From a virus, in IMG/VR virus record IMGVR_UViG_3300047552_000153, positions 1 through 33,674 of that record: 33,674 nt of DNA. One strand, written 5' to 3'. Positions 5,339 through 16,890 of the stretch are shown piece after piece. A program made the position numbers and the translations under genes. Within the stretch, counting starts at the first letter, position 1; each line of letters starts with the position of its first letter. A model generated the notes under the pieces. It had not been told where the DNA came from, made no database searches, and worked only from the letters and a program-made list of their open reading frames with translations.

Positions 5339-6566
5339 TTGTAACCTCCGCGAAAGGTTCGCCAGTTTCTGCGTGAGTTGCTATTTTGCCTGTGAAATCC
5401 TGCCAACGCTTCACAATCACATCGCAATACTTCGGATCGAGCTCCATCAGTCTGGCATGGCGTCCTGTTTTCTCACAGGCGATCAATGTTGATCCACTGC
5501 CACCGAACAGATCGAGGATTTCATCTCCCTGCTTGCTGCTATTGCGGATGGCTCGCTCTGGCAGCTCAACGGGCTTTTGTGTCGGGTGGAAATCGTTGCG
5601 CGGCTCCTTTTTCAGCTCCCAGACCGTCTTCTCGTTGCTGGGGCCATACCAGGCAGGAGAGCATCCAGTCTTGTGCAGGTACATGCACGGCTCGCAGTTG
5701 GGGATATATTGGGCCATGAAAGCCCCAAGGCCGGATTTGACTTTGTACCACTGGATGACCGCCCGCAAAGTAAGAGGCAACTGCGCCAATGACGCAAATG
5801 TCTCAATGCTCTTGCCAGAGGCGTACCAGACATAAAAAGCCGCACCATCTTTAGTGCATGGGATTGCTGCAGCCAGCGCACCATAGAACAGGCCCGTCAG
5901 ATCTTTTCCTTCCAATGTGTCGGCAATGATTCCTTGGCGCTTTTTCTTGTTGTGGCCGCCTTCATACGCGACACCATAAGGTGGATCGGTAAAAACCATG
6001 TCAGCCTTGCGGTTCTCAAGCAAACGATCGACTTCTGACAACACGGTGCTATCCCCGCACATTAGTCGGTGATTTCCCAATACCCAGACATCACCGCGCA
6101 CGGTAATCGGATCGACAGGGACATCCGGCACGGCGTCCTCATCGGTCAGGCCTTCCTCGACCTGCACAGGCGTCAGTGCGTCGATCTCGTCTGCCGTGAA
6201 TCCGGTCAAGTCCAAATCAAAGCCCATGTCGGTCAGCTCTGCGAACTCCAGCGCCAGCAGGTCGTTGTCCCATTCGGCAAACTCGGCCATGCGGTTGACG
6301 CTAATGCGAAACGCCTTGATTTGCGCTTCTGTCATGTCATCAGCCAGAATCACTGGCACTTCGGCCATGCCGAGCTTTTTGGCTGCCTTCAGTCTCAAGT
6401 GGCCATCGACCACCAGTCCATCCGACTTGGCCACCACGGGAACACGGAATCCGAACTCCTTGATGGCTGCAGCGATCTTGTCCACAGCGTGGTCGTTCTT
6501 GCGCGGGTTGCGTGCGTACTCTGTCAGCCGTTCTATCGGCCATGTTTCAAAGGTAAGCGGGATCAT
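5319..6566 (-). CDS. DNA methyltransferase with N-terminal ParB-like domain
   Basis: The product has 415 residues. Residues 1-95 form a ParB/sulfiredoxin-type nuclease-like domain (ARNPRKNDHAVDKI, then VVDGHLRLKAAKKLG). A methyltransferase follows, with motif IV TDPPYG at about 193-198, HPTQKPVEL at about 327-335 and the SAM-binding DLFGGSGST at about 352-360. DPPY before the FGGSGS motif gives the beta order, and DPPY usually means N6-adenine (or N4-cytosine) modification. No restriction enzyme gene is nearby, so it probably modifies phage DNA to escape host restriction or affects packaging or replication timing. The target sequence cannot be deduced. Its ATG overlaps the RusA stop (ATGA), and its end overlaps the small terminase gene. 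Confidence 0.93.
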   Translation of the reverse strand: MIPLTFETWPIERLTEYARNPRKNDHAVDKIAAAIKEFGFRVPVVAKSDGLVVDGHLRLKAAKKLGMAEVPVILADDMTEAQIKAFRISVNRMAEFAEWDNDLLALEFAELTDMGFDLDLTGFTADEIDALTPVQVEEGLTDEDAVPDVPVDPITVRGDVWVLGNHRLMCGDSTVLSEVDRLLENRKADMVFTDPPYGVAYEGGHNKKKRQGIIADTLEGKDLTGLFYGALAAAIPCTKDGAAFYVWYASGKSIETFASLAQLPLTLRAVIQWYKVKSGLGAFMAQYIPNCEPCMYLHKTGCSPAWYGPSNEKTVWELKKEPRNDFHPTQKPVELPERAIRNSSKQGDEILDLFGGSGSTLIACEKTGRHARLMELDPKYCDVIVKRWQDFTGKIATHAETGEPFAEVTNGKANS

Positions 6567-6910
6567 TCTGTGGGCCTTTCGATGTGAACTTCTACGAATC
6601 CGCCGACCGTCTCGCCCTTGCGGATGGTCAGCGTCCAGTGTTTGTCGTCTACCTTGAGCACGTCGGCCAGGCCATCGAGACCGGCTTTCATGCGTGCCAG
6701 GGCGTTGTCCAGGTCGTACTGCCTGCGGGTTGGCGGGTAGAACGTCAGGGTCAGGTGCAGGCTGGCGGACTGGATCGGGCGTGCGCCTTGCTCCATGGCC
6801 TGCCAGAAACAGAGCTCTCGGTATTGCTTTTTGAGCTTGGCGGTCTTGGCCCAGTGGTTTCTTGCGTTTGGGGACAGGCCGGTGGGTGGCCAGGGAAGGA
6901 TGATTTTCAT
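6563..6910 (-). CDS. rusA: RusA-family Holliday junction resolvase
   Basis: The ATG at 6910 gives 115 residues beginning MKIILPWPPTGLSPNARNHW, the usual RusA start (hydrophobic strand, PP, N-x-x-x-HW). The metal-binding core is YDLDNALARMKAGLDGL, with aspartates at 66 and 68 and a further acidic pair at 88-89, corresponding to the three catalytic aspartates of E. coli RusA. It cuts four-way junctions made during replication and recombination, before packaging. An upstream in-frame extension of 31 residues is ignored because it runs through the small membrane protein gene. The start overlaps that gene's stop, and its own stop overlaps the methyltransferase start, both as ATGA. Confidence 0.92.
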   Translation of the reverse strand: MKIILPWPPTGLSPNARNHWAKTAKLKKQYRELCFWQAMEQGARPIQSASLHLTLTFYPPTRRQYDLDNALARMKAGLDGLADVLKVDDKHWTLTIRKGETVGGFVEVHIERPTE

Positions 6911-12386: not shown

Positions 12387-12614
12387 ATGAGCACACGCAT
12401 TTACCTGGTCACCGACGTGGAGACCAACAAACACCGCCTGATTCGCGCAGGCAACCAGGCCCAAGCCATACGGCACGCAGCGCAGACGCGCTTCGACATC
12501 GAGGTGTCTGGCCAGGATGATCTGGTGAGCCTGCTGACCAGTGGCATCCCGGTCGAGCTGGCCGGTGGGCCTGCGACTGCAGATATGTTTGAAGACGTAA
12601 AGGAGACAGCATGA
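12387..12614 (+). CDS. Conserved hypothetical phage protein (75 aa)
   Basis: The ATG at 12387 (CTGGAGC ribosome site upstream) gives MSTRIYLVTDVETNKHRLIR followed by AGNQAQAIRHAAQTRFDIEV and SGQDDLVSLLTSGIPVE. This beta-strand then helix arrangement with a QDDLV motif recurs in many phage accessory regions without known function. An in-frame TTG six codons upstream is possible but lacks spacing. The short 14-bp gap after SSB is one of the few gaps in this operon. No catalytic residues stand out. Confidence 0.75.
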   Translation: MSTRIYLVTDVETNKHRLIRAGNQAQAIRHAAQTRFDIEVSGQDDLVSLLTSGIPVELAGGPATADMFEDVKETA

Positions 12615-13099
12615 AACGCTACATTGGAACCAAACTGATCAACGCCAAGCCAATGACACGGCAGGCCTACAACGACTTCCGAGGGTGGACTTTGCCAGCC
12701 GACGAAAACGGGGCAGACGAAGGATATCTTGTTGAATACGTAGATGGCGGAAAAGGCAACACCGATCATTACGCCGGTTATGTGAGCTGGTCGCCTGCTG
12801 ACGTTTTCGACCGCGCATACCGCCCATGTGAAGGCATGACGTTTGGCCAAGCCATCGAGGCAATGAAGGCTGGCCAGAAGGTCGCTCGCTCTGGCTGGAA
12901 TGGCAAAGGGATGTTCGCATATTACGTCCCAGCCAACAGCTACCCTGTGCAAACAGGTGCAGCCAAGAGCCACTTCGGAGAAGGCGCGATGGTTCCATAC
13001 AACGCTTACATGGCCATCAAGAACGTCAATGAGACAGTCAGCACTTGGGTTCCAAGCGTGAATGATGTGCTGTCCGATGACTGGAGGATTGTCGAATGA
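12611..13099 (+). CDS. DUF2829/Tad2-like protein with extra N-terminal domain (candidate anti-Thoeris)
   Basis: The 162-residue product has two parts. Residues 76-162 (MTFGQAIEAMKAGQKVARSG, WNGKGMFAYYVPANSY, then VPYNAYMAIKNVNETVSTW and VLSDDWRIVE) match DUF2829, the Tad2-like domain. Tad2 proteins of several phages bind and sequester the cyclic ADP-ribose-type signal of the bacterial Thoeris defence. Residues 1-75 form a separate domain (IGTKLINAKPMTRQAYNDFR, DEGYLVEYVDGG, YVSWSPADVFDRAY), a module often found alone or fused in phages. Signal binding here is inferred from the fold; the pocket residues cannot be verified by eye. It sits among small accessory genes, where counter-defence genes often lie. 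Confidence 0.85.
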   Translation: MKRYIGTKLINAKPMTRQAYNDFRGWTLPADENGADEGYLVEYVDGGKGNTDHYAGYVSWSPADVFDRAYRPCEGMTFGQAIEAMKAGQKVARSGWNGKGMFAYYVPANSYPVQTGAAKSHFGEGAMVPYNAYMAIKNVNETVSTWVPSVNDVLSDDWRIVE

Positions 13100-15243: not shown

Positions 15244-15491
15244 CTGAGATCGAAAGCCGCGTGGCAGGCATTCCCTGCATCATCCGGGTGACCCACTTCG
15301 AGAGCGTGCGCGGGTCGTACAGCTACAACGCGCCCAGCGACATGGACTATTACGGCTACAGCGAGTGCGAGTGGGAAGTGCTCGACCGCAATGGCCGCCC
15401 AGCTGCCTGGCTGGAGCGCAAGCTCACGGATGCCGACCGCAGTCGAATCGATCAGGAGATCGAGGAAGCCATGACCGAGGATGCGTACTGA
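15240..15491 (+). CDS. Hypothetical protein (83 aa)
   Basis: The ATG at 15240 overlaps the previous stop (ATGA); an in-frame ATG four codons upstream lies inside the membrane protein gene. The product (MTEIESRVAGIPCIIRVTHF, with YGYSECEWEVLDRNGRPAAW) resembles a small beta-rich phage protein whose tail is an acidic helix (DRSRIDQEIEEAMTEDAY). The WEVLDRNGRPA-W element recurs in short phage accessory proteins. No function is recognised. Its stop shares a base with the next ATG. Confidence 0.7.
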   Translation: MTEIESRVAGIPCIIRVTHFESVRGSYSYNAPSDMDYYGYSECEWEVLDRNGRPAAWLERKLTDADRSRIDQEIEEAMTEDAY

Positions 15492-15715
15492 TGGACGCGC
15501 TCGGACACTACGACAAGCTGTATGGCGACCTTGGCCTGTCTCCAAAGGACGCCGCGCAATGGGTGTTCGTCTCAGGTTGGAACAGCGCCATGCAGGAGGC
15601 TCTGGAGCGCATCCAGGCCATGCCACTGCAGCCGGACACCAAGGCATCGTTTGCGGTCTATTTTCAGCAGATGATGCACATCGACCCATCTACCATTCAA
15701 GCGAGGATGCAATGA
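15491..15715 (+). CDS. Hypothetical protein (74 aa)
   Basis: The ATG at 15491 forms TGATG with the previous stop. The protein starts MDALGHYDKLYGDLGLSPKD and continues with QWVFVSGWNSAMQEALERIQ. It is mostly helical, with no known motif. It ends four bases into the exported Rap1a-like gene. It is compact, soluble and acidic. Confidence 0.65.
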   Translation: MDALGHYDKLYGDLGLSPKDAAQWVFVSGWNSAMQEALERIQAMPLQPDTKASFAVYFQQMMHIDPSTIQARMQ

Positions 15716-16038
15716 AAAAACAGATTTTGTCCATGATTGCCTGCATTGCTTGTGCAAGTGCTCAGGCAGAGTTCAAGGATGGAAACAGGTTACTGTCTGA
15801 AATGAATGGCGATTTCGGCAAGCAGATGAACTCAATCGGGTATGTCACAGGAGTTGCCGATGCTCTGTCTGGCGCGACGTTCTGCGGGCCGCAAAACATC
15901 ACGGCAGGACAAATATACGACATGACCAAGCAGTTCTTGGAAAACAACCCGGCAGTGCGGCACATCTCGGCAGATGTGATCATCAATCGGCTACTCAAGA
16001 ATGCGTGGCCTTGTGCACAGAAAGGACAGAACCTATGA
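15712..16038 (+). CDS. Exported Rap1a/Tai-like protein
   Basis: The 108-residue protein starts with a signal peptide (MKKQILSMIACIACASAQA, then mature AEFKDGNRLLS). The rest matches the Rap1a/Tai family plan: a DGNRLLSEMNG start, SIGYVTGVADALSG, one cysteine in TFCGPQNITAGQIYD, FLENNPAVRHISADVIINRL, and a final AWPC cysteine. Family members neutralise type VI secretion peptidoglycan amidases in the periplasm, and more divergent relatives are widespread. Two conserved cysteines likely form a disulfide. A phage-borne, periplasm-directed member is unusual and could protect against amidases, block superinfection or tune lysis. The gene is coupled to both neighbours by ATGA. Confidence 0.75.
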   Translation: MKKQILSMIACIACASAQAEFKDGNRLLSEMNGDFGKQMNSIGYVTGVADALSGATFCGPQNITAGQIYDMTKQFLENNPAVRHISADVIINRLLKNAWPCAQKGQNL

Positions 16039-16622
16039 GCATCGAAGCAATGAAGCAGGCGCTGGAGGCGTTGGAATATCACACAGCACAGACGCGCCCA
16101 ATAACGCAGACACAAGACGCCATCACCGCCCTCCGCACCGCCATCGAGCAAGCAGAGAAGCAGGAGCCGGAGGATGTGACCGAGCTTGCTTTTGAAGCAT
16201 GGTGGCTGCGAAGCGGTCAATTTCTTCGTGCTGGTGGCGGGGACTACGAAAAGACCTTTGCCTATCACGCATGGTTGGAGTCTCTTGCTTGCACCACCCC
16301 ACCCGCAGCGCCTGTGCAGGAGCCGGTGACACTGAATCGTGCTGGAGTTCAAAAACTTCTGGAGCAGTCTGGTTACGACAATGCAAACCCAGAAGAGATG
16401 GCTGCTTTTATCAGCGGCATCAGGCATCGTGAGGCGGAAATGCTGGACACCCCACCCGCAGCACAGCGGCAATGGGTTGGGCTGACGGATGAGGAAGCTA
16501 TTCAAGTTGCCATCGAAATCGACATCGAGTTCAAAGACGAAGGCAGAGAGCAACAAGAGGACGACATTCAAACCTTTGCCCACGCCATCGAAGCCAAGCT
16601 GCGCGAGAAGAACTCCGCCTAA
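16035..16622 (+). CDS. Hypothetical modular phage protein (195 aa)
   Basis: The ATG at 16035 (MSIEAMKQALEALEYHTAQT) follows the previous stop with overlap. The N-terminus is the common phage module IEAMKQALEALE-x-H...ITALRTAIEQAEKQEPED. A second part (AFEAWWLRSGQFL, YHAWLES) is followed by two short repeats of TPPAAPVQEPV / TPPAAQRQWVG type (about residues 88 and 142), and an acidic C-terminus (EEAIQVAIEIDIEF). The repeat linkers suggest shuffling of small modules between phages. It is the last plus-strand gene, and its stop overlaps the stop of the convergent zinc-ribbon gene by four bases. Confidence 0.75.
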   Translation: MSIEAMKQALEALEYHTAQTRPITQTQDAITALRTAIEQAEKQEPEDVTELAFEAWWLRSGQFLRAGGGDYEKTFAYHAWLESLACTTPPAAPVQEPVTLNRAGVQKLLEQSGYDNANPEEMAAFISGIRHREAEMLDTPPAAQRQWVGLTDEEAIQVAIEIDIEFKDEGREQQEDDIQTFAHAIEAKLREKNSA

Positions 16623-16834
16623 CGCTTTCCAGCCCTCTGTCTGGCATTGGCATCAGCCTGCCACTGATCTCGGCACTCAGGGCCGCAAAAGCGCCTATCA
16701 GCGGCCACAGGCTCTTCACAGTAGTGGCACAGGCCAGTCGGCTCAAGTCGCTGATGTGGCTGCCTGGCGGAGGTCAGGCAGGCCTCGCGCTCTTGCTCTT
16801 CTCGGATGGTGGCTTGGTCGGAAACGTCGGTCAT
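16619..16834 (-). CDS. Zinc-ribbon-like small protein (71 aa)
   Basis: The ATG at 16834 is the first after the terminator; a longer frame reaching back to 17035 runs antisense and through the holin gene. The protein has a charged helical start (TDVSDQATIREEQEREACL) and one zinc knuckle, LCHYCEEPVAADRRFCGPEC followed by RDQW. The four cysteines in C-x2-C...C-x3-C spacing can bind one zinc. Such proteins recur near phage lysis genes without an assigned function. Its ATG is fused to the T-run of the terminator (TTTTTTATG), so it is expressed only by read-through. Confidence 0.75.
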   Translation of the reverse strand: MTDVSDQATIREEQEREACLTSARQPHQRLEPTGLCHYCEEPVAADRRFCGPECRDQWQADANARQRAGKR

Positions 16835-16860
16835 AAAAAAGACCCGGCACAAAGGCCGGG
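16835..16860 (-). terminator. Intrinsic terminator after lysis block
   Basis: On the minus strand the stem CCCGGC / GCCGGG (16855-16860 with 16843-16848, six perfect GC pairs, loop of six) is followed within two bases by six T residues (16840-16835). This is a textbook intrinsic terminator for the long leftward transcript. Unusually, the T-run touches the ATG of the next gene (16834). Confidence 0.88.
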
Positions 16861-16890
16861 CAAGGCGGCCGAAGCCGCTGGAGACAACTG

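What the first reader, a model, noticed from the sequence alone, without database searches (positions are those of the whole stretch)
15712..16038. Phage-encoded exported Rap1a/Tai-like protein
A signal peptide and the family plan (DGNRLL, GYVTGVADAL, C in TFCGPQ, terminal AWPC) suggest a periplasmic protein related to immunity proteins against type VI amidases. A phage would benefit if it guards infected cells against attackers, or if it blocks host or competitor peptidoglycan hydrolases during infection. This role in phages is not established.
Basis: partly seen in the sequence, partly recalled or inferred. Interest (0 to 1): 0.7.

Follow-up and report, generated by a model that had tools for sequence, protein, structure and literature searches.

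The report
Phage periplasmic Rap1a-fold inhibitor cassette
This phage carries a small exported protein with the fold that bacteria use to block wall-cutting toxins; sister phages lack it or carry a different version of its working part, so it is probably a swappable shield for the infected cell, although its target is unknown.

Summary
The ORF at 15712-16038 (+) encodes a 108-aa protein with a signal peptide. It matches Pfam Rap1a (5e-14) and its AlphaFold model matches only Rap1a/Tai4 crystal structures well (Z 12-13). The coordinates and motifs given are correct. The protein belongs to a phage-only clade, apart from the clade of T6SS immunity proteins. None of 22 carrier records searched encodes a Tae4 amidase. 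Across 274 gammaproteobacterial genomes the family is no more common where a T6SS is present (9 overlaps, 9.1 expected), so the name 'T6SS immunity' should not be carried over. New findings: (1) the gene is accessory: a 90%-identical sister phage lacks it cleanly, and 0 of 50 relatives have it. (2) A second sister phage (93% identical flanks) keeps the same signal-peptide DNA but has a different mature domain (42% identity), so the domain has been exchanged. (3) Phage-specific near-invariant residues fall on the surface with which Rap1a plugs its enzyme. Best reading: an exported, disulphide-locked inhibitor of a peptidoglycan peptidase, carried as interchangeable cargo to protect the infected cell. 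Fold and family are shown; inhibition and target are inferred. UniProt and PHROGs already list phage members; I found no paper on their function.

The parts
15712..16038 (+). Rap1a-family protein, 108 aa (P0001)
   Evidence: Pfam PF18602 5e-14; phrog_3870 4e-15; AF2 model pLDDT 83, above 90 over most of 21-100; Foldseek/VIA matches to 3zfi, 4bi8, 6ije, 6ijf
15712..15768 (+). signal peptide, residues 1-19 (cleavage AQA|E inferred)
   Evidence: KK n-region, hydrophobic core, A-x-A site; A19 invariant and F21 conserved in relatives; low pLDDT over 1-20
15769..16035 (+). mature domain, residues 20-108 (about 9.7 kDa); C58 and C101 equivalent to the Rap1a C78-C122 disulphide
   Evidence: alignment with Serratia Rap1a; size and Cys count; structure in PMC3852654
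15901..15921 (+). phage signature T64-A-G-Q-x-x-D70, aligned with the Rap1a segment (Q84-E90) that blocks the Ssp1 active site
   Evidence: contacts from PMC3852654
15716..16622 (+). accessory slot: window sequence absent from sister phage L033, where 11 bp lie between the flanks
   Evidence: 15715 at L033 7071, 16623 at L033 7059; sequence; L171 carries another rap1a allele here
16035..16622 (+). second gene of the slot, modular protein of unknown function (195 aa), ATGA-overlapped with rap1a
   Evidence: similar modular proteins fill the slot in relatives without rap1a; no Pfam or PHROG match
15491..15715 (+). upstream small ORF, overlapped (ATGA) with rap1a; conserved in L033 and L171

Best explanation
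It is a phage-borne Rap1a-fold (Tai4a-type) inhibitor. The protein is exported to the periplasm of the infected cell, where a disulphide (C58-C101) locks a small helical bundle, probably a dimer. It works by seating the alpha2-alpha3 loop and the start of alpha3 (TAGQxxD) in the active-site cleft of a peptidoglycan-cleaving cysteine peptidase of the NlpC/P60/CHAP kind. It is made from the early/replication operon as optional cargo. Its mature domain is exchanged between sister phages behind a constant signal peptide, as expected if the choice of target matters. The most likely use is to protect the infected cell's wall from enzymes delivered from outside: the wall-piercing hydrolases of superinfecting phages, or T6SS amidases of neighbours. 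Shown: fold, family, accessory status, domain exchange. Inferred: export, disulphide, dimer, early expression, inhibition and target.
For: Profile and fold match only Rap1a/Tai4 at high confidence, and solved members of this fold neutralise peptidoglycan endopeptidases by steric block (PMC3852654). Both disulphide cysteines are kept in all phage relatives aligned. Six residues are near-invariant in phages but not in bacterial relatives; four of them (T64, G66, Q67, D70) sit at Ssp1-contact positions (p = 0.006, post hoc). Clean presence/absence against L033. Window against L171: flanks 93% identical, signal-peptide DNA 80-87% identical, mature domain 42% identical at the protein level and closer to other phages (66% to L169 for the window, 58% to L018 for L171). 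Strong purifying selection within alleles (dN/dS 0.02-0.14). In enterobacterial temperate phages the gene sits on the opposite strand inside the head-gene cluster, like a moron. T4 Spackle shows that phages do use early, periplasmic, helical hydrolase inhibitors (PMC7677548).
Against: No target has been identified. Carriers share no single virion hydrolase class: SLT in 2 of 20 records, NlpC/P60 in 7 of 22. Most bacterial family members sampled are orphans without a T6SS or a conserved neighbour, so the family's general function may not be inhibition. T64 and Q67 could be a helix-capping box, which would make their conservation structural. HdeA/HdeB chaperones are the next fold matches (Z 5.6-7.2). 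The mature protein is near neutral rather than acidic, although the known T6SS targets are strongly basic (PMC3852654).
Confidence: 0.45

Rival explanations
1. A specific T6SS immunity protein in the strict sense: it neutralises Tae4-type amidases injected by neighbouring bacteria so that the infected cell survives until lysis.
For: Same fold and family as Rap1a and Agrobacterium Tai4, which do this. Exchange of the mature domain fits cognate specificity.
Against: Separate clade from the T6SS-linked members; no Tae4 in carriers; family uncoupled from T6SS in 274 genomes; only 3 of 69 genomic Rap1a places lie next to a Tae4; cognate contact residues differ from Serratia Rap1a.
Confidence: 0.2
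2. It inhibits or retunes the host's own wall hydrolases (for example NlpC/P60 endopeptidases such as MepS), keeping the wall intact or halting growth during infection.
For: Residues near-invariant across phages of very different hosts and dN/dS of 0.02-0.03 in one group suggest a conserved target; NlpC/P60 enzymes are widespread in bacteria (control genomes).
Against: The mature domain is exchanged and the gene is absent from the close relatives searched, which is unusual for an essential host takeover function. No direct evidence.
Confidence: 0.15
3. It is not an enzyme inhibitor but an HdeA-like periplasmic binding protein or chaperone, or another family-wide function that only became immunity in the T6SS clade.
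For: Most family members sampled are stand-alone genes outside T6SS. HdeA/HdeB are the only other periplasmic fold matches (Z 5.6-7.2).
Against: HdeA similarity is at the level of a common arrangement (sequence identity 3-6%), and the tool warns that helical folds reach such Z by chance. Phage-specific conservation on the plug surface has no obvious chaperone meaning.
Confidence: 0.15
4. A neutral passenger: an accidentally acquired host gene without benefit to the phage.
For: Absent from 50 of 50 related phage records; variable slot.
Against: dN/dS well below 1 between homologues in other phages; found in several unrelated phage groups, most of them in one phage-only clade; signal peptide and both Cys always kept; overlapped start and stop in the operon.
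Confidence: 0.05

Closest known systems
Serratia marcescens Rap1a (Tai4a), neutraliser of Ssp1 (PDB 3zfi, 4bi8; PMC3852654)
   Same: Pfam PF18602; fold (Z 12.8, rmsd 1.6 over 86 residues); exported; the two disulphide cysteines; Y/D of the dimer interface (Y64/D70 equal to Y44/D50)
   Different: About 20% identity; encoded by a phage, without a cognate amidase; contact residues differ (Q84 to T64, V86 to G66, T87 to Q67, E90 to D70); different clade
Agrobacterium tumefaciens Tai4 (PDB 6ije, 6ijf)
   Same: Best sequence match in the PDB (2e-5; 3e-8 with the phage profile) and best fold match (Z 13.0)
   Different: T6SS partner of Tae4; 23-26% identity; falls in the T6SS clade
PHROG 3870, UniProt 'Rap1a immunity protein domain-containing protein' of uncultured Caudovirales phages, E. 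coli phages Bp4 and SP5M, and phage DSL-LC04 'Tai4'
   Same: Same family, phage-borne, small; BFVD models of two uncultured-phage members match at 37-40% identity
   Different: Catalogued by annotation only; I found no paper assigning a function. The exchangeable mature domain was found here.
T4 Spackle (PMC7677548)
   Same: Functional analogue: early phage gene, exported, small helical protein that inhibits a wall hydrolase in the periplasm
   Different: No sequence relationship was tested or claimed; Spackle acts on the gp5 lysozyme at a distance from its active site

Membership tests
Rap1a family (Pfam PF18602) | Score above the curated cut-off | tested here: met
   53 bits against 27.7
Rap1a family (Pfam PF18602) | Rap1a five-helix fold | tested here: met
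   AF2 pLDDT 83; VIA Z 12.4-13.0 to Rap1a/Tai4 entries, Foldseek prob 1.0
Rap1a family (Pfam PF18602) | Disulphide cysteines equivalent to C78 and C122 | tested here: met
   C58 and C101, 13/13 phage rows and 26/26 bacterial rows; bond formation itself not tested
Rap1a family (Pfam PF18602) | Periplasmic export by signal peptide | tested here: inconclusive
   Sequence features fit; no predictor or localisation experiment available
T6SS immunity proteins (Rap1a/Tai4a in the functional sense) | Encoded next to a cognate Tae4/Ssp amidase | tested here: not met
   No PF14113 match in the window or in 21 other carrier records
T6SS immunity proteins (Rap1a/Tai4a in the functional sense) | Falls in the T6SS-linked clade | tested here: not met
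   Window in a phage-only clade (97/96); T6SS-linked rows in another clade (99/98)
T6SS immunity proteins (Rap1a/Tai4a in the functional sense) | Neutralises the amidase | not testable with these tools
   Needs binding and protection assays
Spackle-type superinfection exclusion (by function) | Made early and located in the periplasm | tested here: inconclusive
   Last-but-one gene of the + strand replication operon, opposite to the late genes; signal peptide features; no expression data
Spackle-type superinfection exclusion (by function) | Inhibits an incoming virion hydrolase | not testable with these tools
   The window phage has an SLT domain in a virion-like protein, but carriers share no hydrolase class

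The most novel reading that the evidence does not exclude
Unrelated phages use one modular cassette, a constant signal peptide followed by interchangeable Rap1a-fold plugs, as a tunable periplasmic shield against wall-cutting enzymes sent in by rival phages or bacteria. The T6SS immunity proteins of bacteria would then be one specialised branch of an older anti-hydrolase family.
Probability: 0.2. Interest if true: 0.8.

Novelty: new variant of a known kind. Interest (0 to 1): 0.5.

Why it matters
Rap1a-domain proteins are labelled 'immunity protein' wherever they occur. Here the phage branch, and most bacterial members sampled, are uncoupled from T6SS, so the label misleads. If the phage proteins block wall hydrolases, they would be a phage-borne shield of the infected cell's wall, related in function to T4 Spackle but built on another fold, and with exchangeable specificity. 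The test is simple: small soluble proteins, known crystal homologues, and relatives in cultured E. coli and Cronobacter phages.

Tried and rejected
A single-protein scan of viral contigs found no relative; alignments were needed. The one genome-contig scan was too restrictive, finding only an Enterobacter copy already seen as a viral contig; family HMM searches of genomes replaced it. Tae4 in carriers: none. A shared virion hydrolase as common target: not found. A promoter for the moron-like copy in L020, or near the window gene: none found on the coding strand. Mapping Salmonella Tai4 Ser98 (PMC3695027) onto this protein was dropped, because PMC3852654 shows that Salmonella Tai4 has a different fold from Rap1a. 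E. coli genomes held no DNA match to the enterobacterial copy. PADLOC: no match for rap1a or four other early-operon proteins. Papers: none with 'Rap1a immunity protein' or 'Tai family immunity protein', and the DSL-LC04 paper does not mention its copy by amidase, Tai4 or type VI; subscription literature is not covered. Conserved partner of bacterial orphans: none seen by eye in 15 short neighbourhoods.

Full report
What is there. The ORF at 15712-16038 on the + strand is intact and encodes 108 aa. It is joined by ATGA overlaps to the ORF before it (15491-15715) and the ORF after it (16035-16622), at the end of the + strand gene run that holds the replication and recombination genes. Late genes (coat, portal, terminase, tail, holin, endolysin) are on the - strand. 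The record is a 33,674-base virus contig, with terminase kin in Paracoccus and Aeromonas phages. Host unknown.

Family and fold. Pfam Rap1a 5e-14, PHROG 3870 4e-15, PDB Tai4 2e-5, and with a profile of 13 phage proteins Tai4 3e-8 and Rap1a 5e-7. The AlphaFold model (pLDDT 83, above 90 over most of residues 21-100) matches Rap1a and Agrobacterium Tai4 at Z 12.4-13.0, with HdeA next at 7.2.

Relatives. Alignment-based scans gave 23 viral contigs with the gene and five further ones, in addition to DSL-LC04, Microcystis phages, Cronobacter phage ENT47670 and the coliphage Bp4. The phage proteins keep a signal-peptide-like start, two cysteines in the mature part (four in the Microcystis copy), and the signature [NT][IV]T[AR]GQ..D plus R83. 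The tree puts the window inside a phage-only clade (97/96), while Rap1a, Tai4, a gene next to Tae4 (L164) and a double-domain protein (L005) form another (99/98). Most bacterial relatives sampled have four or more cysteines; the phage clade and Serratia Rap1a lack the extra conserved one at position 41.

Is the family tied to T6SS? In 274 genomes of one class, Rap1a (49 genomes) and the T6SS sheath protein VipB (51) overlap in 9, against 9.1 expected (OR 0.98). As a positive control, Tae4 (10 genomes) overlaps with VipB in 7 (OR 11.7, p = 4e-4). Three of 69 Rap1a places lie next to a Tae4. No Tae4 occurs in 22 carrier records. Some genomes may be incomplete, and Tae4 is only one effector family.

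Accessory status and domain exchange. Among phages with the most similar endolysin, none of the loci held and none of 50 whole records carries the gene; the same search rings in the window, so the negative is meaningful, although several records are fragments. Sister L033 (about 90% nt identity) runs through 15715 and resumes at 16623, with 11 bp between. Sister L171 is 92-97% identical in most flanking blocks and has a rap1a gene in the same place, but identity falls at the end of the signal peptide. Codons 1-20 are 80-87% identical in DNA; the rest of the protein is 42% identical. The window's mature part is closer to L169 (66%) and that of L171 to L018 (58%). L171 also lacks the second slot gene. 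Point mutation cannot plausibly produce this beside 93% identical flanks; the mature domain was exchanged. Within alleles, dN/dS is 0.02-0.14. Other relatives fill the slot with modular genes like 16035-16622. In enterobacterial temperate phages the gene sits alone on the strand opposite to the head genes around it, like a moron, though no promoter was seen.

Mechanism. In the Ssp1-Rap1a complex a Rap1a dimer sterically blocks the enzyme; Gln84 contacts the catalytic His, and Ser81, Gln82, Thr85, Val86, Thr87, Glu90 and Glu94 are among the contacts (PMC3852654). Phage-specific near-invariant positions number six; four (T64, G66, Q67, D70) fall on these contact positions (p = 0.006, post hoc, neighbouring positions not independent). 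T64 and Q67 could also cap helix 3. Plug-type inhibition is thus plausible but not shown. The target is open: incoming phage hydrolases, T6SS amidases, or host enzymes. Carriers share no single virion hydrolase class. T4 Spackle is the precedent for an early phage periplasmic hydrolase inhibitor.

Verdict. The specific reading as protection from T6SS amidases is not supported beyond shared fold. The best reading is an interchangeable periplasmic inhibitor that protects the infected cell's wall. Phage members are already catalogued, so the kind is known; the exchangeable domain, the phage-only clade and the missing link to T6SS are what this work adds.

Noticed in passing
window 12611-13099 (+): Tad2-like protein (Pfam PF11195, 2.2e-25), a family named after an inhibitor of Thoeris defence. 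It is also accessory: its place is kept in sister L033 and missing in L035 and L171.
   Followed up: partly
window 16035-16622 and the same slot in L034, L035, L036, L042, L055, L065, L085: A modular protein family with a conserved start (about ALKLALEAL) and end (about WVGLTDEE...AIEAKLKEKN) and interchangeable middles fills this slot in related phages.
   Followed up: partly
L005 (OR845410.1), positions 6-912: A GenBank 'Escherichia phage' fragment carries a double Rap1a-like domain after an OmpA-like C-terminus; it groups with T6SS immunity proteins and looks like bacterial DNA rather than phage.
   Followed up: partly
L004 7899-8225 (Cronobacter phage ENT47670): Unannotated Rap1a-family gene on the opposite strand within the head-gene cluster.
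   Followed up: yes
L009 2059-6615 and L019 6626-8004: Next to rap1a in two phages lie a probable SAM methyltransferase and a glycosyltransferase-like gene; L009 also has a Bug/TctC-like periplasmic solute-binding protein (5632-6615). Identified by eye only.
   Followed up: no
L138-L163 (bacterial relatives): Stand-alone bacterial Rap1a-like genes usually have four or more cysteines, including a conserved one at window position 41 (24 of 26), suggesting a second disulphide that the phage and T6SS clades lack.
   Followed up: partly
window 16841-16861 (-): Terminator-like hairpin with a T run between the convergent early and late gene blocks.
   Followed up: no
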